From contig JACQYE010000062.1 in the NCBI GenBank assembly GCA_016208355.1, positions 1 to 45,511 on the forward strand: a stretch of 45,511 nucleotides of DNA, written 5' to 3'. The position numbers and the translations under genes are program-made. This stretch comes from Chloroflexota bacterium. GTDB lineage: Bacteria > Chloroflexota > Anaerolineae > Anaerolineales > Villigracilaceae. The number at the start of each line of letters is the position of its first letter. Positions within the stretch are counted from its first letter, which is position 1. This document shows, in pieces, positions 17,293 to 26,456 of this stretch. The notes under the pieces were generated by a model, which did no database searches, was not told where the DNA came from, and saw nothing but the letters and a program-made list of their open reading frames with translations.

Positions 17293-18312
17293 ATGACGAC
17301 CCCGTTAACACCTGAAGTACTTGTGCCTCGCTTGGGAGAATACTTGGTGCAAAAAGGCACCATTACCGATGCAGATCTGAAAAGAGCGCTGGCATATCAG
17401 ACAGAGATTCAAAGCACTGGCAAACGCTGCTTTCTGGGCCAGGCCCTGATGGAATTGGGTCTGGTGGAGCGCCGCCAGCTGGACCATGCCGTCACCGAAC
17501 AGATTATCCAACTCCGTAATGCTCTCGAAGACGCCAACCGCTTCCTCGAACGACGCGTGCAAGAGCGTACCTCCGAATTGCAGGACGCTTTGCAGAAACT
17601 TTCCGAGTTGAGCCAGTTGAAAGCCAATTTCGTTGCCAATATCTCACACGAACTGCGCACCCCCCTCACGCACATCAAAGGGTATCTCGAACTCCTGGCA
17701 ACCGGATCTTTGGGCGGATTGACCGCAGAACAAAAAAACGCTCTCCAGGTGAGCCAGCGAGCAACGGGGCAATTGGAAAGCCTGATTGACAACCTCATCC
17801 TGTTCTCCCAGGCTGAGCGCGGCGAAATGACGCTTCATCTCCTACCCGTAGATATTGCGAAGGTGGCGGGCGAGATCATCAACTATTCCCTTACCAAAGC
17901 CAGCAATCGTAATGTGACTCTGGAGCACGAAATAACCATTGACTTACCCTTTGTCCAGGCTGACGAGGAAAAAATATCCTGGGCGATTCTGCAGCTGCTC
18001 GATAATGCCATAAAATTCACTCCTGCTGGCGGGAAAGTGCTCCTGTCCATCCAGCCGGAAGCGGACAACCTGATCATGGTTTCAGTGATTGATACTGGCA
18101 TTGGCATTCCTGCGAATCGCCTGGAAGAAATATTCGAGCCTTTCCACCAGTTGGATAGCTCATCCACCCGCCGCTATGGAGGCACCGGGCTGGGTTTGGC
18201 GTTGGTGCGTGATATTCTCAATGCGCACGGTTCGATCATTGAGGTTGAGTCAGATGAAGGGAAAGGTTCCACTTTCCGCTTCCCCCTGCTGTCGGCCAAA
18301 ATTGTCATGTGA
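17293..18312 (+). CDS. Histidine kinase with MshEN-like (c-di-GMP-binding type) N-terminal domain
   Basis: A 339-residue soluble sensor kinase. Residues 13-36 match the MshEN/GspE-N motif RLGxxLxxxGxxxxxxLxxxLxxQ at every fixed position. A second copy at 47-70 lacks only the leading Arg and has Val for one Leu. In MshE-type ATPases this tandem motif binds cyclic di-GMP. A coiled coil (about 72-110), a HisKA domain with H119 in NISHELRTPL and a HATPase with N, G1 (DTGIGIP) and G2 (GGTGLGLAL) boxes follow. It overlaps the next kinase by 4 bases. Sensing c-di-GMP is an inference from the motif; the gap between copies is 10 residues rather than the 5 I recall for MshE. Confidence 0.88.
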   Translation: MTTPLTPEVLVPRLGEYLVQKGTITDADLKRALAYQTEIQSTGKRCFLGQALMELGLVERRQLDHAVTEQIIQLRNALEDANRFLERRVQERTSELQDALQKLSELSQLKANFVANISHELRTPLTHIKGYLELLATGSLGGLTAEQKNALQVSQRATGQLESLIDNLILFSQAERGEMTLHLLPVDIAKVAGEIINYSLTKASNRNVTLEHEITIDLPFVQADEEKISWAILQLLDNAIKFTPAGGKVLLSIQPEADNLIMVSVIDTGIGIPANRLEEIFEPFHQLDSSSTRRYGGTGLGLALVRDILNAHGSIIEVESDEGKGSTFRFPLLSAKIVM

Positions 18313-19520
18313 CGATTGGATTGTGCATGGAGATTGAAACGCTCGAAGAGCTTACTCGGTTGTCCCCCTCCAACGTAAAAGGCGATTGGATAAAATATCT
18401 TGATTCCCTGTTTACCACCCTGAGAAAGCGCTTCGTTTTTGACAATCTGTGCATATACAAAGTGGAGAAAGCCAATGGCGTTGTAGAGGCTGTATACGCC
18501 CGTGCGATTGGACGAGGACGGAGCAAGGAGGCCGATGCTCCCTGGGGAGACGACATAGCCAACCAGGTGATCGCTTCCGGCAAATTGACATTCTCCGCCC
18601 CGCATAAGGGCGCCGACTCCGACCGGATCGCAATGCCTCACTTGTTTGGCCTCCCGCTGGTCCTCCCTTCCGGGCAGGGCGCGCTCGTTTTTGTTCGCTT
18701 TGGCGGACCGGATTACACAGCAGAACAGCTTTCCTGGGCTCTGCTGGCAGCCAGCCAGGTGACGCGCGGTTTCGAGCACCGTTCATTACAGGAGGCGTTG
18801 GACCAACTCGAACTAGCCCGTCGCCACACCCGGTTGCAGGATGATTTCATTGCCACGATCTCCCACGAATTGCATACCCCTCTGGGTTTTATCAAAGGCT
18901 ATACCACTTCGCTCCTGCGGCCCGATACTACTTGGGACGCCGCGACGCAACGGGAATTCCTCACCATTATTGACGAAGAAACCGACCAGTTGGTGATGCT
19001 CATTGACCGGATGCTTGACTCAGCCCGCCTGCAGAGCGGAAATATGATTATGGACTTCCAACCGGTGCGCCTGGAAGCCCTCCTCCGTGATGTTGTCATC
19101 CGCATCCAGGGACGGCATAAAGGTCTCGAGATCGGCCTGGACCTGGAACAGGCCGCCCCCATCTTGGCAGATACCGTCCGCCTGAGCCAGGTTTTCAACA
19201 ACCTGTTCGATAATTCCATCAAGTATGCTCCCGGCGCGGCTATTGAGATCTGCCTGACGGCGGATGAAAAGCGCCAGATCGTAACCTTCACAGACCACGG
19301 GCCCGGCATACCGGCTGAGCATTTGCCCTACCTTTTCGACCGGTTTTATCGGGTCCCTGATGGCAACAACAAGCGTGGCACCGGACTTGGATTGTTCATC
19401 TGCAAGCAGATCATCCAGGCCCATACTGGGCACATATCCGTCAAGACCGTCCCCGGAAAAGGGACCTCTTTCCGCATCGAATTACCAGCCCAGCCGGCAG
19501 CAATTTCCCCAGAGAGGTGA
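18309..19520 (+). CDS. Histidine kinase with GAF-like N-terminus
   Basis: Soluble sensor kinase of 403 residues. An N-terminal GAF-like region (about 10-160) is followed by a short coiled coil. HisKA has H186 in the box TISHELHTPLGF, where the usual Arg after Glu-Leu is His. The HATPase shows N (NNLFDNSIKYAP), DHGPGIP and GTGLGLFICKQ. The GTG start at 18309 overlaps the previous stop; an ATG at 18327 is an alternative and neither has a clear ribosome site, which fits translational coupling. It ends 2 bases before the response regulator start. Two kinases beside one regulator suggests they may work on it together. Confidence 0.9.
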   Translation: MTIGLCMEIETLEELTRLSPSNVKGDWIKYLDSLFTTLRKRFVFDNLCIYKVEKANGVVEAVYARAIGRGRSKEADAPWGDDIANQVIASGKLTFSAPHKGADSDRIAMPHLFGLPLVLPSGQGALVFVRFGGPDYTAEQLSWALLAASQVTRGFEHRSLQEALDQLELARRHTRLQDDFIATISHELHTPLGFIKGYTTSLLRPDTTWDAATQREFLTIIDEETDQLVMLIDRMLDSARLQSGNMIMDFQPVRLEALLRDVVIRIQGRHKGLEIGLDLEQAAPILADTVRLSQVFNNLFDNSIKYAPGAAIEICLTADEKRQIVTFTDHGPGIPAEHLPYLFDRFYRVPDGNNKRGTGLGLFICKQIIQAHTGHISVKTVPGKGTSFRIELPAQPAAISPER

Positions 19521-19522
19521 AT

Positions 19523-20218
19523 ATGCCTGTACGCATTCTGGTCGTGGACGATGAACCCCGTTACCTGCGCCTTTTGGAAGCCAACCTGCTGACCGAAGGC
19601 TATCAGGTCTATACCGCCTCAGATGGCGAAGCGGCCTTGGAAGCCTTCTCTGGCGGCCCGGTTGACTTGATCCTGCTGGATGTGATGATGCCGCGCATGG
19701 ACGGATTTACCGTTTGCCAGCGCATCCGCCAGTTCTCCAATGTGCCTATTATCATCCTGACCGCCAAAGGCGAAGAACAAGACCGGGTGCGCGGCCTGGA
19801 CGTTGGCGCCGATGATTATCTGGTCAAGCCGTTCTCCATCACCGAATTATTGGCGCGCGTCCGCGCTGTTTTGCGCCGTGCCCAGGTCTCGGAGGTCGGC
19901 CAGGAACGATTCTTTTCTCATGGCGGCTTGCGGATTGATTTTGCCCGCGCTGAGGTCTGGCTGGCTGAAACGCCGGTATACCTCTCGGCCACCGAATACC
20001 GCCTGCTTCTCCAGTTCACGCATAACATCGGGAAAGTACTAACGGCCGAGGAATTGCTCACCAGCGTTTGGGGACCGGAATATCGCGAGGATAAGGAAAT
20101 CCTGTGGGTCACGATTGCCCGGTTGCGCCAAAAGGTGGAAGAAGATCCGCATACCCCCCGGCATATCGTCACCCGCTCCGGGTTGGGATACCTGATGCCC
20201 CCGCTGGAAACAGCATAA
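19523..20218 (+). CDS. OmpR/PhoB-family response regulator
   Basis: Transcription factor with receiver domain (acidic pair D9-D10, phospho-acceptor D53 in LILLDVMMPRMDG, switch Thr in ILTAKG, Lys in YLVKPF) and a C-terminal winged helix (EYRLLLQFTHNIGKVLTAEELL, then RLRQKVEEDP and GLGYLM). The 231-residue length is standard. Start at ATG 19523 with GAGAGG upstream, preferred over an in-frame GTG at 19517 that lies inside that ribosome site. Presumed partner of the two kinases just upstream. Confidence 0.94.
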   Translation: MPVRILVVDDEPRYLRLLEANLLTEGYQVYTASDGEAALEAFSGGPVDLILLDVMMPRMDGFTVCQRIRQFSNVPIIILTAKGEEQDRVRGLDVGADDYLVKPFSITELLARVRAVLRRAQVSEVGQERFFSHGGLRIDFARAEVWLAETPVYLSATEYRLLLQFTHNIGKVLTAEELLTSVWGPEYREDKEILWVTIARLRQKVEEDPHTPRHIVTRSGLGYLMPPLETA

Positions 20219-20235
20219 CTCCTGGAAGGTAAAGT

Positions 20236-21387
20236 ATGGACCGACCACCTGTTACTGTTCTAATCATAGATGGAGATGCAGCCAGCCGGAATTACCTGTC
20301 GGCCATGCTGCTCAAGGAGGGCTACCAGGTATTGACCGCCTCGCTTGGGCGCGAAGGACTGATCTCTGCCTGGAAGGACCAACCCGGAATCATCATCATT
20401 GATCCTGTGCTCCCTGATATCCCCGGTCTGGAAGTGGTCGCCCGCCTCCGGCAGGATCGGCGCACGGCCAAGGTCCCGTGTGTGGCGCTCTCCAGCCAGG
20501 AAGACGCGCAGGAAATGTCGGCGTTGCTGGCGGCTGGCTGCAACGAGTACATGCTCAAGTCTGGCGACGCCCTCGCGCGCCTGTTCCAGTTCCTGCCACG
20601 CTTATCGAATAAGGAAAGCACACTGGCAAAACGCGGCAAAATGATTGCGTTCTTGAGTGCCAAAGGAGGCACGGGCACCTCGTCATTGTGCGCCAACATT
20701 GCCATGTGTGTTGCGAGCACAAAAGCGGATAAGCGCGTGGCTGTTCTCGACCTGGTACTCCCCATCGGCTCGATTGCCAATATTGTGGGCTATGATGACC
20801 GCACCAACCTGATTTTCACAGCCTTGCAAAAGCCGGAAGCCACCAATGCGACTTATTTCAAGGAAAACCTGCCTCGCATCTCTGGCTGGTACTTTTACCT
20901 TCTTGCCGGCCCCCCGGACCCTGCCTCATCCACCCAACTGGCTAGTGATCGCGTAGCCGGGATCATGGATGCGCTCCTGGATTCCCATGATTATCTTTTT
21001 GTAGATTTAGGCCGTTCCCTCTCGCGCATTAGCCTGCCTATTATCCAACAGGCCAACGCGCTGGCTTTGATCTTGGGCACCGATCTGGCAACCTGTACCC
21101 TAACGCAGACAATCCTTGAATACCTGAAAACTCTTGGAATAGACACCCGGCGAATCTTTGCCATCCAGAACCGTTCGGTGGGCCTGGAAGGTTTGACGAA
21201 ACCCGAAGCCGAGAAGTTGATCGGGCTGCCCATCCAGGTCACCATTCCTTACCTGGGAGATAACCTTACTGTTGCCAATAACCGCCATGAGCCATTTATT
21301 TACAGATTCCCCAACGACGCAACCTCAATGGCTTTACGGCAAGTTGCCTCCCAGGTGCTTGAATTGTCTGAAAAGCAGTTTCGCTGA
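20236..21387 (+). CDS. Receiver domain fused to MinD/ParA-like ATPase (CpaE/TadZ-like)
   Basis: A 383-residue protein with a receiver domain (residues 6-120) keeping D12, D14, D56, a Ser in ALSSQ and Lys in YMLKSG, so it can probably be phosphorylated. It is fused to a ParA/MinD-type ATPase with deviant Walker A SAKGGTGTSSLCANIA and Walker B-like YLFVDLG. CpaE/TadZ proteins of this build place Flp/Tad pili at the cell pole. No other tad genes are in the window, so the target may be different. It follows the OmpR-type regulator by 17 bases. Confidence 0.88.
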   Translation: MDRPPVTVLIIDGDAASRNYLSAMLLKEGYQVLTASLGREGLISAWKDQPGIIIIDPVLPDIPGLEVVARLRQDRRTAKVPCVALSSQEDAQEMSALLAAGCNEYMLKSGDALARLFQFLPRLSNKESTLAKRGKMIAFLSAKGGTGTSSLCANIAMCVASTKADKRVAVLDLVLPIGSIANIVGYDDRTNLIFTALQKPEATNATYFKENLPRISGWYFYLLAGPPDPASSTQLASDRVAGIMDALLDSHDYLFVDLGRSLSRISLPIIQQANALALILGTDLATCTLTQTILEYLKTLGIDTRRIFAIQNRSVGLEGLTKPEAEKLIGLPIQVTIPYLGDNLTVANNRHEPFIYRFPNDATSMALRQVASQVLELSEKQFR

Positions 21388-21445
21388 ACAGGAGCGGTCG
21401 CAACCCTCAATCTGCCACAGGGCGCTGGCTAGCCATAAATCTCTT

Positions 21446-21454
21446 TGCTATAAT
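21446..21454 (+). promoter_or_regulatory. Extended -10 promoter of the V4R operon
   Basis: TG-C-TATAAT (TG at 21446-21447, TATAAT 21449-21454), an extended -10. A poor -35 (TGGCTA) lies 17 bases upstream. It leaves a leader of about 18 bases with AAAGGAAA before the ATG at 21479. Confidence 0.65.
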
Positions 21455-21478
21455 GCTTCTAATGAAAAAGGAAATCCT

Positions 21479-22156
21479 ATGAGCATTCAGGCACAGGTTG
21501 TTGTTCGTTCCAAGAAATTAGGCGTCCTCATCCGGGATGCCCGTCTGGCGCAGAGGAAGACCATACCGGAGTGTGCCACTGCCACTGGCGTACCGGCCGG
21601 CTTTTTACGCGCCTGGGAAGAAGGGCGTAAATCCCCCTCTTTGCCTGAACTGGAAGTGCTCGCTTATTACTTCTCCCTGCCCATGAGCCATTTTTGGAGC
21701 AAGGACGCCCGTTCTGATAATTCCATCCCGACCGGGGCCATGAACCTGCCTGCCCTTGTGGGTATCCGCCAGCGCCTGGTGGGTGCGATGCTCCGCCAGG
21801 AACGCGAGAAAGCCAGCCTGTCCCTGCGGGCGCTTTCCGAATCATCAGGCATTTCAATCCCCCGGCTGAAATCCTATGAACTGGGGGAACGCCCGATCCC
21901 TTTGCCGGAATTGGAAGGGCTGATGTCTTTGCTGGGTGGGCGGGTCGAATCCCTCTTTGACCAAAACGGACCCGTTGGTCTGTGGATGGCGGAACAAAGG
22001 GCCATTGCGGATTTTCTCCAAATGCCCCGTGAAATGCAGGATTTTGCCTCCAAGCCGGTCAATCGTCCTTATCTTGAACTCGCGATGAAGTTGAGCAATA
22101 TGTCAACCGATAAACTGCGCTCGGTGGCTGAAGATTTACTGGATATCACTCTCTAA
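21479..22156 (+). CDS. Tandem helix-turn-helix (XRE-type) regulator
   Basis: A 225-residue protein with two Cro/C1-type HTH domains. The first (about 13-75) contains AQRKTIPECATATGVPAGFLRAWEEGRKSPSLPELEVLA; the second (about 100-165) contains REKASLSLRALSESSGISIPRLKSYELGERPIPLPELEGL. A helical tail follows. The start at 21479 is set by the promoter at 21446-21454. The stop overlaps the next start by one base (TAATG). It probably controls its own operon; no ligand domain is seen. Confidence 0.85.
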   Translation: MSIQAQVVVRSKKLGVLIRDARLAQRKTIPECATATGVPAGFLRAWEEGRKSPSLPELEVLAYYFSLPMSHFWSKDARSDNSIPTGAMNLPALVGIRQRLVGAMLRQEREKASLSLRALSESSGISIPRLKSYELGERPIPLPELEGLMSLLGGRVESLFDQNGPVGLWMAEQRAIADFLQMPREMQDFASKPVNRPYLELAMKLSNMSTDKLRSVAEDLLDITL

Positions 22157-22683
22157 TGTCCAAACATTCCGACCCTCAAACCCTGGCTGTACAAGCCAAA
22201 CAAGTTTACGAAATGGGTGATTTCCCCGCCGCTGGACAGGCCTTTGCAGATGCAGCTGAGGCTTTTCTCTCCGCGGGCGATAAACTCATGGCCGCGGAGA
22301 TGAAGAACAACCAGTCTGTTTCGCTCCTGCGTGCGAAGCAGGCTCAATCTGCCCTGGATGCCGTGGAAGGGACCGAGGCTGTCTTTGCTGACGCTGGCGA
22401 TTTTCGCCGCCTGGGGATGGCTCACGCCAACCGCGCCTCTGCCCTCGAGGCACTAAGACGTCACCCGGACGCCATTGCCGCCTACGAAAAAGCCGGAGAG
22501 TCGCTGGAAAAAGCCGGGGAAGACCAAATGCGCGCCCAGGTGATGCAGTTGCTCTCGGCGCTTTACCTGCGGCGCTGGAAATTCCTGAACGCTGTTATTT
22601 CCTTACAGTCCGGGCTGGCGGGTGTCAAGGATCCTACACCGAAGCAGCGCCTGATGAAGAAACTGCTGTTCTTCCGGTTATGA
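22156..22683 (+). CDS. Small TPR-repeat protein
   Basis: A 175-residue helical protein with tetratricopeptide-like repeats, for example QAKQVYEMGDFPAAGQAFADAAEAF and NRASALEALRRHPDAIAAYEKAGESL. No signal peptide or membrane helix. It is probably a protein-protein adaptor for the other products of this operon. Start overlaps the HTH gene stop by one base; its own stop overlaps the acetyltransferase start by 4. Confidence 0.8.
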   Translation: MSKHSDPQTLAVQAKQVYEMGDFPAAGQAFADAAEAFLSAGDKLMAAEMKNNQSVSLLRAKQAQSALDAVEGTEAVFADAGDFRRLGMAHANRASALEALRRHPDAIAAYEKAGESLEKAGEDQMRAQVMQLLSALYLRRWKFLNAVISLQSGLAGVKDPTPKQRLMKKLLFFRL

Positions 22684-23537
22684 TATTCGAAAGCCTTGTC
22701 CGCTCGGCGGTATTCACAGACCAGCGCCCGCTGTCTCGGTTGATCGAGAACAACTACTTTGTCCATCGCCACCTGGACTGGCGTGAGCCATTGAGCTGGA
22801 TTGGATCCGCGCCTTTCCTGGTGCTGGAACGCCGGGGAGAATTGGTCGGCGCCCTGGCCTGCCCTCAAGATCCTCCTGGAGTGGCCTGGCTGCGGCTCTT
22901 TGTTATTTATGAAGTCGAAAACGAGAAAGAGGTTTGGCAGATGCTGTGGGAGGCTGCCTCCCGCGAACTCTCCCAGCATATTGGTATCATGGTCGCGGCC
23001 ATTGTCATGCTGAAGCGGATGGCTCCCATGCTGATCGAGAGCGGGTTTACCACCCAACAACAACTTGTGATGCTCGAGAAGAACGACGGTGGTTATTCTG
23101 GCGACACCTCCTGTGGACAGGGAATATCCATCCGCCCGATGCTGATCCACGACCTGTCCGCCGCGGCGGACGTGGACGCGTCGGCTTTTGCACCTCTCTG
23201 GCGGAACTCGCTCCCGGATCTCTCCCGCGCTCATACCCGGGCGCTCCTTGCGGCAGTAGCCGAGGTGGAAGGGCGGGTGGTTGGGTATCACATCAGCACC
23301 CGGAACTCTATCGGGATCCACCTCGCCAGGCTGGCGGTCCGGCCAGATGCGCAGGGACGCGGCATCGGTCAGTCCCTGATGAATGATCTATTCGTCCAGG
23401 CTGAACGGCACGGCATCCACCGCTTTACTGTCAATACCCAGAGCGATAATGCCGTCTCACTGGCGATTTACAAGAAACTGGGTTTCTTTGAAACTGGTGA
23501 ACGCTACCCGGTGTACCAGCGCCAGGTTTCACATTGA
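22680..23537 (+). CDS. GNAT-family N-acetyltransferase
   Basis: A 285-residue protein whose C-terminal half (about 150-285) is a clear GNAT domain: acetyl-CoA loop VRPDAQGRGIGQSLMNDL, then NTQSDNAVSLAIYKKLGFFETGERY. The N-terminal half looks like a second, decayed GNAT-like domain, but without a clean acetyl-CoA loop. Substrate is unknown. Overlaps the TPR gene by 4 bases and is 9 bases before the first V4R-like gene. Confidence 0.85.
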   Translation: MIFESLVRSAVFTDQRPLSRLIENNYFVHRHLDWREPLSWIGSAPFLVLERRGELVGALACPQDPPGVAWLRLFVIYEVENEKEVWQMLWEAASRELSQHIGIMVAAIVMLKRMAPMLIESGFTTQQQLVMLEKNDGGYSGDTSCGQGISIRPMLIHDLSAAADVDASAFAPLWRNSLPDLSRAHTRALLAAVAEVEGRVVGYHISTRNSIGIHLARLAVRPDAQGRGIGQSLMNDLFVQAERHGIHRFTVNTQSDNAVSLAIYKKLGFFETGERYPVYQRQVSH

Positions 23538-23546
23538 GGAGGCAGT

Positions 23547-24167
23547 ATGGTCAACCCGGAAGAGGCTGTCATTGTTAATGCGCTCGTACGGCAGGCATTG
23601 GTGTCGGCCCAGGAAGTGATGGGTGAGAATGGCCTGAATGCTGTCCTGCGGAGCGTTGGGCTGGGGCGGTTTATCGGTAATTTCCCGCCCAATGACACCA
23701 ACCCTGGTATTAAGACCACAGAGTATGCCAGATTTAATGAGGCGATTGAATCCTTTTATGGTCGGGGCGGCAAGGGGATGCTGCGCCGGATTGGGAAGGC
23801 ATCGTTCCAATATGGCGTGCGTGAACAGGGCGCACTGATGGGAGTGGCCGGCGCGGCACTTAAACTCATGCCCGCTAGAAGTCGCATTAAGTTTGTGCTG
23901 AACGGCATGGTCAACGCCCTGAAAAAAACAAACCCACAGGTGAACGCCTGGGTGGAAGAAGACGGCGACAGAATTGCCTATTGCGAATCCACGTGCGCCA
24001 TCTGCCTGGGGCGGCATAGCGACCAGCCTGTCTGCCACCTCTATGTCGGCTCGGTGGGGGAGGCAGTGCGCTGGGCTACCGACCAGGATTATGAGATCGT
24101 CGAGACACACTGCGTCGCCAGAGGCGACGCCTATTGTCGTTTTGAAGTGGGCGAGGTGCTTGCGTGA
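23547..24167 (+). CDS. V4R-domain protein 1
   Basis: A 206-residue soluble protein. The C-terminal part (about 125-204) matches the V4R domain, a small-molecule and metal-binding fold found in BchJ and in sensors. It has a Cys cluster YCESTCAICLG...PVCH and the closing motif ETHCVARGDAYCRFEV. The N-terminal helical half contains FYGRGGKGMLRRIGKASF, which recurs in the next gene. GAGG precedes the ATG. It overlaps the next start by 4 bases. Ligand unknown; a Zn or Fe-S site is possible. Confidence 0.8.
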   Translation: MVNPEEAVIVNALVRQALVSAQEVMGENGLNAVLRSVGLGRFIGNFPPNDTNPGIKTTEYARFNEAIESFYGRGGKGMLRRIGKASFQYGVREQGALMGVAGAALKLMPARSRIKFVLNGMVNALKKTNPQVNAWVEEDGDRIAYCESTCAICLGRHSDQPVCHLYVGSVGEAVRWATDQDYEIVETHCVARGDAYCRFEVGEVLA

Positions 24168-24742
24168 TCTCTACGCGCCTGGCGAAGACATTCATCGCAG
24201 CGGCCGTGGATGAGACCGGGATCCATAATCTCCCGTCCGTCCTTGCCAAGTCTGGTCTGACGCCGGGAGACCTGGAACGGGTGGACGCTGGCTCGGCAGG
24301 CGACATTTATGCCCGTTACCAGCATGCTCTGCGTTTATTTTACGGCCGCGGGGCGCGCGGGATGCTGCTGCGCATTGGCCGCAGCATGTGGGACCGGCTA
24401 TCGGAGGGGACTGGGCTGAAGGAGAAGGCTGAACTCGAAATCGTCCGCAGGCTCCCGGTCCCGGCCCGGCGGAGGCGGGTGCTGGACTTGGTCGCGGCGC
24501 GCCTCCAGGAGGGCGGAGGCAGCGCCTCGGTCCACACCCTGGACCTGGACCTCCTCCTTGTGGATCGGACTGGCGCGGCGGTGATAGGGCAGGAGGAAGG
24601 TGAACCCATCTGTTACGTCACGCTTGGCTTGATTCAGGAGGCTTTTTTCTGGGCAACCGGCAAGGAAGCCGATGTGGATGAAATCTCGTGCAAGGCGGCC
24701 GGCGCTCCGGCTTGTGAATTCAAAGTAAAACTTGGAGGCTGA
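24164..24742 (+). CDS. V4R-domain protein 2 (paralogue, partly lost Cys cluster)
   Basis: A 192-residue relative of the preceding protein. It shares FYGRGARGMLLRIGRSMW at a matching position and ends with DEISCKAAGAPACEFKV, the V4R closing motif. The middle Cys cluster is reduced to a single ICY, so metal binding may differ or be lost. GTG start at 24164 overlaps the previous stop. The pair probably arose by tandem duplication and may form a heterodimer (inference). Confidence 0.78.
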   Translation: MISTRLAKTFIAAAVDETGIHNLPSVLAKSGLTPGDLERVDAGSAGDIYARYQHALRLFYGRGARGMLLRIGRSMWDRLSEGTGLKEKAELEIVRRLPVPARRRRVLDLVAARLQEGGGSASVHTLDLDLLLVDRTGAAVIGQEEGEPICYVTLGLIQEAFFWATGKEADVDEISCKAAGAPACEFKVKLGG

Positions 24743-24744
24743 TT

Positions 24745-25572
24745 ATGCAAACCCGTGAATGGAACTTCAAATCATTTGATGGCCTGGAAATGTACGCGCG
24801 CGACTGGACGCCCGACGGCAATATGAAAGCGGCCGTGGTGCTTGTCCATGGACTGGGGGAACACTGCGGGCGGTATGCCCATGTGGGCGCGACGCTGGCG
24901 AAGAACGGCTATGGCTTGTTTGGGTTCGACTTGCGCGGACATGGCAAATCAGGCGGGCCGCGCGGCCATTCCCCTTCCTTCGAAGCGTTCATGAAAGACA
25001 TTGATGGAATGTTCGAGAAAGTGAAAGAAAAATTCCCCGGCAAGCCCCTATTCGTTTACGGGCATAGCCTGGGCGGCATCCTGGTGCTGAATTACATCCT
25101 GCGGCGAAAGCCGGAATTGAAAGGCGCGGTGGTCACCTCGCCCGGTATGCGGACGGCGTTGGAGGAACAAAAAGCCAAGGTTGCCCTGGCAAAATTGCTT
25201 GGCTCGCTTGCCCCCTCTGCCAGCCTGCCCAGCGGCCTGGATGTAGACGTGCTCTCTCATGATGTCGAAGTTGTCCGTGCCTATAAAGCAGATCCGCTCG
25301 TGCATGACAAAGTCTCTTTCGGAATGGGGAAGAACTTGCTTCAAGCCATTCAATGGGCGTTCGATCACGCTTCAGAGTTTTCGGTCCCGCTCCTGCTTAT
25401 GCACGGCACGGAAGACCAGATTGCCTACCCGCGCGGCAGCCAGGAATTTGCCTCGCTGGTGAAAGGGGACTGCACCCTGAAGCTCTGGGAAGGGATGTAC
25501 CACGAAACCCACAATGAGCCGGAAAAAGAACAGGTCTTTACTTACCTGTTGGAATGGCTGGCAAAACATTGA
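24745..25572 (+). CDS. Alpha/beta hydrolase, monoacylglycerol lipase/lysophospholipase-like
   Basis: A 275-residue serine hydrolase. Oxyanion region LVHGLGEHCGRY, LRGHGKSGGPRGH, nucleophile elbow YGHSLGG, acid in HGTEDQIAYP and His in MYHETHNEPEK form a complete triad of the Hydrolase_4 group. No signal peptide, so a cytoplasmic ester hydrolase. It is the last gene of the six-gene operon, 2 bases after V4R protein 2, and is followed by a hairpin. Confidence 0.88.
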   Translation: MQTREWNFKSFDGLEMYARDWTPDGNMKAAVVLVHGLGEHCGRYAHVGATLAKNGYGLFGFDLRGHGKSGGPRGHSPSFEAFMKDIDGMFEKVKEKFPGKPLFVYGHSLGGILVLNYILRRKPELKGAVVTSPGMRTALEEQKAKVALAKLLGSLAPSASLPSGLDVDVLSHDVEVVRAYKADPLVHDKVSFGMGKNLLQAIQWAFDHASEFSVPLLLMHGTEDQIAYPRGSQEFASLVKGDCTLKLWEGMYHETHNEPEKEQVFTYLLEWLAKH

Positions 25573-25596
25573 GCCTGAATTAAAAGCCCATTAGAA

Positions 25597-25628
25597 GAAA
25601 CCCGTTTTCTGCCCGGAAAACGGGTTTC
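25597..25628 (+). terminator. Terminator-like hairpin after the hydrolase gene
   Basis: Perfect 13-bp stem (25597-25609 and 25616-25628) with 6-base loop. The tail TCTCTC is pyrimidine-rich but not a pure T-run, so strength is uncertain. Confidence 0.65.
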
Positions 25629-25691
25629 TCTCTGGACAAACCTTCCCGGTTATGGCAAAATCCGACCACTTTGCATATGAAGGAGCCAAGG

Positions 25692-26456
25692 ATGAGTAAA
25701 CGACAGGAAATACGCGAAAGGCGCCGCCGCGAACGGATGCGCAATCAGATATTGGTGGTTCTGTTTATTGTTGCCGGCGCGTTATTGATTACTTTCGCGT
25801 TGGTCATGCCAACGGTGCAAGGGCTGATTAACAGAGCCAATGCCACCGAGATTCCGGTGACGCCAGTAACGACGCGAACATTCAACGCCCCGGTGGATGG
25901 CACCAGCCTTGGCGACCCGAATGCACCCGTCAGGGTGGATGTGTGGGAGGATTTCCAATGCCCGGCGTGCAAGACCTATACTGAAGGTACAGAAGTCCAG
26001 GTGATCGCGACCTACGTGGAGACCGGAGTAGTCTACTACACCTTCTATCAATACCCTTTTATTGACGGGACTCTTTCCGAGCGAACCATTGCCTGGAATG
26101 ACGGCGAATCAGACCACGCTGCCAACGCTTCATTGTGCGCCGCCGAGCAGGATCGTTTCTGGGACTATCACGATATGCTCTTTGCCAACTGGAACGGCGA
26201 AAACCAGAATGCCTTTGCAGACGAGCGTTTGCTGCGGTTCGCCGAAGTGCTGGAGCTGGATATGGATTCCTTTACCCAGTGCTTTGAAGACGACCGTTAC
26301 CGCGACCGGATCGAGGAAGAATATACACTGGGGCAGCAGTGGGGCAATACCGGGACTCCCAGCGTTTACGTGAATGGTGTTCTGGTGTCTCCGGGCTATG
26401 TCCCTTCATTCGAGCAGGTGGCCGCGGCGATCGAAGCCGCGTTGAACGGGGAATAA
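25692..26456 (+). CDS. Membrane-anchored DsbA-family thiol-disulfide protein
   Basis: A 254-residue protein with a basic N-terminus (KRQEIRERRRRERMR), one transmembrane anchor near residues 20-44 and an extracytoplasmic thioredoxin fold. Active site is CPAC in FQCPACK, with the cis-Pro loop in NTGTPSVYVNG. This is the BdbD/DsbA-like Thioredoxin_4 family, which oxidises or isomerises exported protein disulfides. ATG 25692 is preferred, with AGGAG upstream, over in-frame ATGs at 25671 and 25677. Monocistronic, bounded by hairpins. Confidence 0.9.
   Translation: MSKRQEIRERRRRERMRNQILVVLFIVAGALLITFALVMPTVQGLINRANATEIPVTPVTTRTFNAPVDGTSLGDPNAPVRVDVWEDFQCPACKTYTEGTEVQVIATYVETGVVYYTFYQYPFIDGTLSERTIAWNDGESDHAANASLCAAEQDRFWDYHDMLFANWNGENQNAFADERLLRFAEVLELDMDSFTQCFEDDRYRDRIEEEYTLGQQWGNTGTPSVYVNGVLVSPGYVPSFEQVAAAIEAALNGE

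What the first reader, a model, noticed from the sequence alone, without database searches (positions are those of the whole stretch)
21446..25628. Undescribed six-gene operon: tandem HTH, TPR, GNAT, two V4R proteins, lysophospholipase
Six genes have junctions of 1-base overlap, 4-base overlap, 9, 4-base overlap and 2 bases, with an extended -10 promoter at the front and a strong hairpin at the end. Such coupling implies one system. Parts suggest ligand sensing (V4R), acyl chemistry (GNAT, lipase), an adaptor (TPR) and a regulator. I know of no named system with this composition.
Basis: partly seen in the sequence, partly recalled or inferred. Interest (0 to 1): 0.62.

Follow-up and report, generated by a model that had tools for sequence, protein, structure and literature searches.

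The report
Chloroflexota regulator operon with V4R sensors
This is a real, evolutionarily conserved bacterial operon made of a DNA-binding regulator, its TPR partner and an acyltransferase, into which two metal-site sensor proteins and a fat-splitting enzyme have been added in one group of uncultured Anaerolineales; its composition is undescribed, but each part belongs to a known family and the signal it responds to is unknown.

Summary
In detail: six co-directional genes (HTH, TPR, tandem GNAT, V4R1, V4R2, alpha/beta hydrolase) with the stated junctions, an extended -10 in front and a strong hairpin behind. It is not chance packing. In 49 loci of the same GTDB family with enough sequence, HTH-TPR-GNAT is present in 49, V4R1 in 29, V4R2 in 33, the lipase in 38, and all six in 18. 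The promoter is conserved in 50 of 58. But the six are not one indivisible system. HTH-TPR alone is the class-wide core, sometimes with a sensor kinase between them. A sister family has HTH-TPR-GNAT only. V4R1, V4R2 and lipase lie between GNAT and a downstream thioredoxin gene and were gained or lost repeatedly. V4R1 also stands alone in about 10 genomes. The whole lies downstream of a conserved kinase/kinase/response-regulator/CpaE/CpaF cluster. Both V4R proteins carry an invariant Cys-Glu-Cys-Cys site with exactly the MopR zinc-site spacing; V4R1 adds CxxC, as in the redox regulator MsvR. The 'lysophospholipase' is a monoacylglycerol lipase. Best model: an autoregulated HTH-TPR-acyltransferase unit with plug-in V4R sensors acting in trans. 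Ligand and targets are unknown.

The parts
21446..21454 (+). Extended -10 promoter TGCTATAAT, 24 nt upstream of the HTH start
   Evidence: TATAAT within 80 nt upstream of HTH in 50 of 58 family loci, commonly as TCTCTGCTATAAT
21479..22156 (+). Tandem Xre-type HTH regulator (225 aa) with a conserved C-terminal tail
   Evidence: Pfam HTH_31/HTH_3/HTH_25; SinR, C.BclI and ClgR among nearest solved structures; ortholog in 60 of 61 family genomes
22156..22683 (+). TPR (SNAP-like) protein, 175 aa; constant neighbour of HTH
   Evidence: Pfam SNAP/TPR_12; beside HTH, or one gene away, in 40 of 46 genomes of the class that hold both
22680..23537 (+). Tandem-lobe GNAT N-acyltransferase, 285 aa; C-lobe carries the CoA motif QGRGIG
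   Evidence: Pfam Acetyltransf_1; AF2 pLDDT 94; nearest folds VipF, MAB_4324, MshD; in 49 of 49 family loci
23547..24167 (+). V4R1, stand-alone V4R sensor protein, 206 aa; C163/E186/C189/C197 plus C150xxC153
   Evidence: Pfam V4R 41.6 bits; residues invariant in 32 of 32 orthologs; ungapped match to the MopR zinc-site segment; AF2 pLDDT 90
24164..24742 (+). V4R2, paralogous stand-alone V4R protein, 192 aa; C150/E173/C176/C184, no CxxC
   Evidence: Pfam V4R 41.0 bits; four residues invariant in 34 of 34; 29% identical to V4R1
24745..25572 (+). Monoacylglycerol-lipase-type serine hydrolase, 275 aa; GHSLGG S108, D224, H253
   Evidence: phmmer to solved MGL 6qe2 E 1.6e-51, M. tuberculosis MGL 6eic 3e-48, 3pe6 monoglyceride lipase 3.5e-37; triad near-invariant in the family
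25597..25628 (+). Strong hairpin closing the unit (probable intrinsic terminator)
   Evidence: MFE -25.5 kcal/mol, z -4.5, no shuffle as stable
17293..21387 (+). Upstream conserved cluster in the same direction: two histidine kinases (17293, 18309), OmpR-type response regulator (19517), CpaE-like receiver-ParA protein (20236)
   Evidence: Present upstream of HTH in 40-41 (HK1, HK2, RR) and 31 (CpaE) of 45 family loci with enough upstream sequence
25671..26456 (+). Downstream DsbA/thioredoxin-like protein; frequent 3' neighbour, with the V4R and lipase genes lying between it and GNAT
   Evidence: Pfam Thioredoxin_4; in 36 of 49 family loci; directly follows GNAT in sister-family locus L231

Best explanation
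A lineage-specific, probably autoregulated operon. Shown: HTH and TPR form a conserved pair across the class; GNAT joined it in one order, with overlapping reading frames; the unit has its own conserved promoter; and two V4R proteins with a MopR/MsvR-type Cys-Glu-Cys-Cys site plus a monoacylglycerol lipase are present as optional parts in one family. Inferred: the tandem HTH protein binds its own promoter, with the TPR protein as its partner or signal adaptor (HTH and TPR domains on two chains). The V4R proteins act in trans as zinc- or thiol-site sensors of a hydrophobic ligand or redox state and feed into the HTH-TPR switch, in the way the fused V4R domain of MsvR or MopR acts in cis. The acyltransferase and the lipase are the metabolic output, acting on an acyl or glycerolipid substrate.
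For: HTH-TPR directly adjacent in 28 and one gene apart in 12 of 46 genomes that hold both; the other 6 have them on different contigs. HTH-TPR-GNAT in 49 of 49 loci, all six in 18. Conserved extended -10 in 50 of 58. TPR/GNAT overlap conserved. Sister-family locus HTH-TPR-GNAT-TRX without V4R or lipase. Cys-Glu-Cys-Cys invariant in 32 of 32 V4R1 and 34 of 34 V4R2, ungapped with MopR C155/E178/C181/C189; zinc coordination by three Cys and one Glu in MopR, DmpR and PoxR (PMC10715001). The three MaMsvR cysteines C206/C232/C240 have the same 26/8 spacing, and MthMsvR has a CX2C in its V4R domain (PMC3729527). Two-component genes are the usual upstream neighbours, and a GAF kinase lies between HTH and TPR in genomes of other families. 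Lipase close to solved monoacylglycerol lipases.
Against: No experiment or expression data. V4R1 and V4R2 are absent from about 40% and 33% of the loci, so HTH-TPR-GNAT must work without them. V4R1 is found alone, away from the operon, in about 10 genomes, so its partner may not be this operon. Presence of V4R1 and V4R2, or of V4R and lipase, is not significantly associated (Fisher P 0.21 and 0.18). No operator sequence was identified. V4R dimerisation and metal binding are untested.
Confidence: 0.42

Rival explanations
1. Stepwise genome packing without functional unity: HTH-TPR-GNAT is one small regulatory unit, and V4R1, V4R2 and the lipase are independent genes that settled behind a good promoter.
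For: Facultative presence with 13, 13 and 8 parsimony changes, close to shuffled labels; V4R1 alone beside SMC and peptidyl-prolyl isomerase genes in genomes whose HTH locus lies elsewhere; no significant co-occurrence.
Against: The genes always fall in the same slot and order (GNAT-V4R1-V4R2-lipase) across many genera; 18 of 49 loci keep all six; frames often overlap or nearly so. V4R1 is the most conserved protein of the set (63-88% identical).
Confidence: 0.33
2. The unit is the output or accessory arm of the upstream two-component/CpaE/CpaF cluster, i.e. part of surface-structure or envelope signalling, and HTH-TPR-GNAT respond to that rather than to V4R ligands.
For: HK1, HK2 and RR precede HTH in about 40 of 45 loci, DUF6812 and CpaF in 35, CpaE in 31; nearly the same order occurs in the sister family; thioredoxin/DsbA gene as frequent downstream neighbour.
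Against: HTH-TPR occurs without these genes in almost all loci of other families examined. G185, G194 and G172 keep the operon without the upstream cluster. The conserved promoter right before HTH argues for separate transcription. CpaF is missing at this place in the window.
Confidence: 0.18
3. Split RRNPP-like quorum sensor: the TPR protein binds a peptide and controls HTH in trans.
For: Conserved, closely spaced HTH and TPR genes; a Rap protein appears among weak profile matches of TPR.
Against: TPR matches are generic (designed TPRs, kinesin light chain, SNAP, AfsR); no peptide gene was looked for; HTH and TPR are separate chains.
Confidence: 0.07

Closest known systems
MsvR (methanogen redox regulator, HTH fused to V4R)
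   Same: V4R domain with three cysteines at the same 26/8 spacing and, in MthMsvR, a CX2CX3H as in V4R1 of the window; autoregulatory HTH
   Different: Here HTH and V4R are separate proteins, V4R comes as a pair, and TPR, GNAT and lipase are added; NCBIfam MsvR score 23-25 bits against a cutoff of 220
MopR/DmpR/PoxR/XylR aromatic sensors (V4R + AAA+ sigma54 activator)
   Same: Zinc-site Cys-Glu-Cys-Cys aligned without gaps; DmpR Z 11.1 over 142 residues
   Different: No AAA+ or sigma54 domain; no conserved His in V4R1 before residue 157 to anchor a phenol; stand-alone proteins
Pre-PcyA/BBAG clusters (Fe-S protein, two V4R proteins of clades A and B, globin, FDBR, haem oxygenase; PMC10151467)
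   Same: Two paralogous stand-alone V4R genes side by side
   Different: None of the Fe-S, globin, FDBR or haem oxygenase genes in the operon or among the flanking proteins scanned
Monoacylglycerol lipases (6qe2, M. tuberculosis 6eic, 3pe6)
   Same: Sequence family and catalytic triad
   Different: Operon context
Tandem GNATs (VipF, MAB_4324, MshD)
   Same: Two-lobe GNAT fold with a CoA motif in the C lobe
   Different: Substrate unknown; identity only about 15-20%

Membership tests
V4R domain (PF02830) | Match above the curated Pfam cutoff | tested here: met
   41.6 and 41.0 bits, cutoff 31
MopR/DmpR-type zinc V4R sensor | Zinc ligands Cys, Glu, Cys, Cys at MopR 155/178/181/189 spacing | tested here: met
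   V4R1 163/186/189/197 in 32 of 32; V4R2 150/173/176/184 in 34 of 34; the metal itself was not measured
MopR/DmpR-type zinc V4R sensor | Phenol-anchoring His and Trp | tested here: inconclusive
   Invariant W135 in V4R1; no conserved His before residue 157; no residue-level structural superposition available
MopR/DmpR/XylR regulator | Fused AAA+ and sigma54-activator domains | tested here: not met
   Only the V4R domain found in either protein, 206 and 192 aa
MsvR | N-terminal HTH fused to V4R; NCBIfam cutoff 220 bits | tested here: not met
   23.0 and 24.8 bits, V4R part only
H-NOX (haem NO/O2-binding) | Fold | tested here: met
   AF2 model of V4R1 aligns to H-NOX over 172 residues, Z 14.5, rmsd 3.5
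H-NOX (haem NO/O2-binding) | Proximal haem-ligating His in the helical region | tested here: not met
   Window V4R1 has no His before residue 157 and no position before it is conserved as His
BchJ (4-vinyl reductase name-giver) | NCBIfam TIGR02019 cutoff 74.3 bits | tested here: not met
   21.7 and 15.1 bits
Pre-PcyA/BBAG V4R cluster | Co-encoded FDBR, globin, Fe-S protein | tested here: not met
   None in the six genes or the two flanking proteins scanned; recurrent family neighbours are HK, RR, CpaE, CpaF, TRX
RRNPP quorum sensors | HTH and TPR in one chain | tested here: not met
   Separate genes in the loci mapped
Monoacylglycerol lipase | Sequence family and Ser-Asp-His triad | tested here: met
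   6qe2 E 1.6e-51; S108, D224, H253 near-invariant; activity not testable
Anti-phage defence systems | PADLOC model matches beyond generic HTH | tested here: not met
   Only HTH-type matches to the first protein; none for the other five

The most novel reading that the evidence does not exclude
A trans-acting, split version of MsvR/MopR regulation: a pair of stand-alone zinc/thiol V4R receptors that plug into an HTH-TPR transcription switch and couple a lipid-derived or redox signal, generated or consumed by the co-encoded lipase and acyltransferase, to gene expression in uncultured Chloroflexota.
Probability: 0.2. Interest if true: 0.6.

Novelty: new variant of a known kind. Interest (0 to 1): 0.4.

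Why it matters
Stand-alone bacterial V4R proteins (relatives of Bet3/TRAPP and H-NOX) are widespread but almost functionless on paper. This locus gives a tractable case: a pair with an invariant metal/thiol site, a conserved promoter to read out, and two enzymes that may supply the ligand. It also shows how an old two-gene regulator core collects sensors and enzymes step by step, with intermediate stages preserved in living relatives. HTH-TPR as a class-wide two-chain regulator of Anaerolineae appears undescribed.

Tried and rejected
PADLOC defence search: only HTH-type matches, so a defence role was dropped. Haem binding by V4R1, suggested by the H-NOX fold match, was rejected for lack of a conserved His. 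BchJ/vinyl-reductase function rejected on score. Bilin-cluster membership considered because of the V4R pair, rejected for missing partners. Test for correlated presence of V4R1, V4R2 and lipase: not significant. Parsimony counts barely differ from shuffled labels, so V4R presence carries little lineage signal. The promoter scanner did not list the 21446 promoter, probably for want of a good -35; it was recognised by conservation instead. Papers on Anaerolineae CpaF and on HTH/TPR/acetyltransferase/V4R combinations gave nothing on this locus. Locus L232 (GNAT-only, G034) was fetched but not analysed.
Full report
OBSERVATION. The HTH gene starts at ATG 21479. The extended -10 TGCTATAAT lies at 21446-21454, and a 13-bp hairpin at 25597-25628 folds far better than shuffles. 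Pfam supports each domain call. The hydrolase is closest to solved monoacylglycerol lipases, so 'lysophospholipase' is too specific a name and probably wrong. The GNAT is a tandem-lobe enzyme (AF2 pLDDT 94) nearest to VipF, MAB_4324 and MshD, with the CoA motif in the C-terminal lobe.

HOW FAR THE OPERON IS CONSERVED. Three nested levels came out.

(i) Class: in 150 genomes drawn from the class, 46 hold both a good HTH and a good TPR ortholog. In 28 the two are directly adjacent and in 12 they are about 1.7-2.0 kb apart, room for one gene, always on the same strand and in the same order; in the other 6 they are on different contigs. Two of the intervening genes were identified by Pfam as GAF-HisKA_3-HATPase sensor kinases of about 570 aa, and the others examined match the same cluster. 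A phylum survey with the HTH profile gave matches only inside the class.

(ii) Order: a sister-family genome has AMIDO-HK1-HK2-RR-DUF6812-CpaF-HTH-TPR-GNAT-TRX with no V4R and no lipase.

(iii) Family: HTH is in 60 of 61 genomes. Of 49 loci with at least 5 kb downstream, TPR and GNAT are in 49, V4R1 in 29, V4R2 in 33, lipase in 38, TRX in 36; 18 have all six genes. The slot is always GNAT-[V4R1]-[V4R2]-[lipase], usually followed by TRX.

V4R1 and V4R2 each need 13 changes on an HTH+GNAT tree, the lipase 8, so these are facultative parts. One genome (G027) keeps only a 52-residue V4R2 remnant. The TPR/GNAT junction is an overlap in most loci (median -4 nt; 50 of 54 at most 10 nt).

PROMOTER. 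TATAAT occurs within 80 nt upstream of the HTH start in 50 of 58 loci, very often as TCTCTGCTATAAT. This supports transcription starting at HTH, although the next upstream gene is often only 50-300 bp away. No operator was found.

LARGER CONTEXT. Upstream of the unit in the family lie two histidine kinases and an OmpR-type regulator (40-41 of 45), a CpaE-like receiver-ParA protein (31), DUF6812 and a CpaF/T2SSE ATPase (35 each). In the window CpaE is followed directly by the promoter; DUF6812 and CpaF are absent there. Three loci (G185, G194, G172) keep the operon without the upstream cluster.

V4R PROTEINS. V4R1 is the most conserved of the six (63-88% identical across the family). Sequence search against solved structures aligns it without gaps to MopR residues 149-190, pairing C163/E186/C189/C197 with MopR C155/E178/C181/C189. 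Zinc in MopR, DmpR and PoxR is held by three Cys and one Glu (PMC10715001; PMC7264223). These residues are invariant in 32 of 32 V4R1, and the corresponding C150/E173/C176/C184 in 34 of 34 V4R2. The three V4R cysteines studied in the redox regulator MaMsvR, C206/C232/C240 (PMC3729527), have the same spacing; V4R1 further has an invariant C150xxC153, comparable to the CX2CX3H of MthMsvR. The AF2 model (pLDDT 90) matches H-NOX over 172 residues (Z 14.5) and also TRAPPC3, Bet3, PoxR and DmpR, in line with the known V4R/Bet3 relationship (PMC2253512). No conserved His exists to bind haem. So both are zinc/thiol-site V4R receptors by inference; metal and ligand are unmeasured.

V4R1 OUTSIDE THE OPERON. 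In a scan of named genomes, 63 loci encode V4R1, and the record titles point to Anaerolineae or Chloroflexota almost throughout. In most it follows GNAT, but in L162-L166, L169-L172, L198 and L216 it is not beside HTH/TPR/GNAT. Those genomes hold the HTH locus on other stretches, where HTH-TPR-GNAT is seen. V4R1 can therefore exist without the operon beside it.

MECHANISM. Shown: conserved unit, promoter, domain content, metal-site residues, facultative nature of V4R and lipase. Inferred: HTH autoregulates, TPR is its partner, V4Rs are trans-acting sensors feeding into this switch, GNAT and lipase are the output on acyl or glycerolipid substrates. I give this about 0.42, against 0.33 for simple accretion without functional unity.

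NOVELTY. No literature hit describes the combination. Every part is of a known family. The two-chain HTH-TPR core and the split V4R arrangement make it a new variant, not a new kind.

Noticed in passing
window 20236-21481 and L065-L070, L104-L155: DUF6812 and a CpaF/T2SSE ATPase normally lie between CpaE and HTH in the family; they are missing there in the window and in G163, G192, G182, G159 and G150.
   Followed up: partly
L075 2172-3932, L080, L095, L096, L099, L101, L102: A GAF-HisKA_3 sensor kinase gene of about 570 aa sits between HTH and TPR in genomes of other families.
   Followed up: partly
L162-L166, L169, L170 (around 7001 in most): V4R1, about 70% identical to the window's, stands alone near an SMC gene and, in most, a PPIC-type peptidyl-prolyl isomerase gene.
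   Followed up: partly
L176 3268-6991: A DNA methylase, an EcoRI-type methylase and a GmrSD-type nuclease lie between GNAT and V4R1, as if a restriction system had landed inside the operon; the last two also precede V4R1 in L179.
   Followed up: no
G027 C1:3784288-3784443 (in L070): A 52-residue V4R2 remnant just before the lipase, apparently a decaying copy.
   Followed up: no
window 17293-17520: The N-terminus of the first histidine kinase looks like the N-terminal helical domain of type II/IV secretion ATPases (by eye); Pfam did not match it.
   Followed up: no
window 25671-26456: The downstream DsbA/thioredoxin-like protein resembles the Rcas_1661 (seleno)lipoprotein family (102.8 bits, cutoff 190) and is a frequent neighbour of the unit.
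   Followed up: no
L009 1432-2094: A 61% identical V4R1 in a genome of another family (G057), on a short contig with a PKD-domain gene; possible horizontal transfer or binning error.
   Followed up: no
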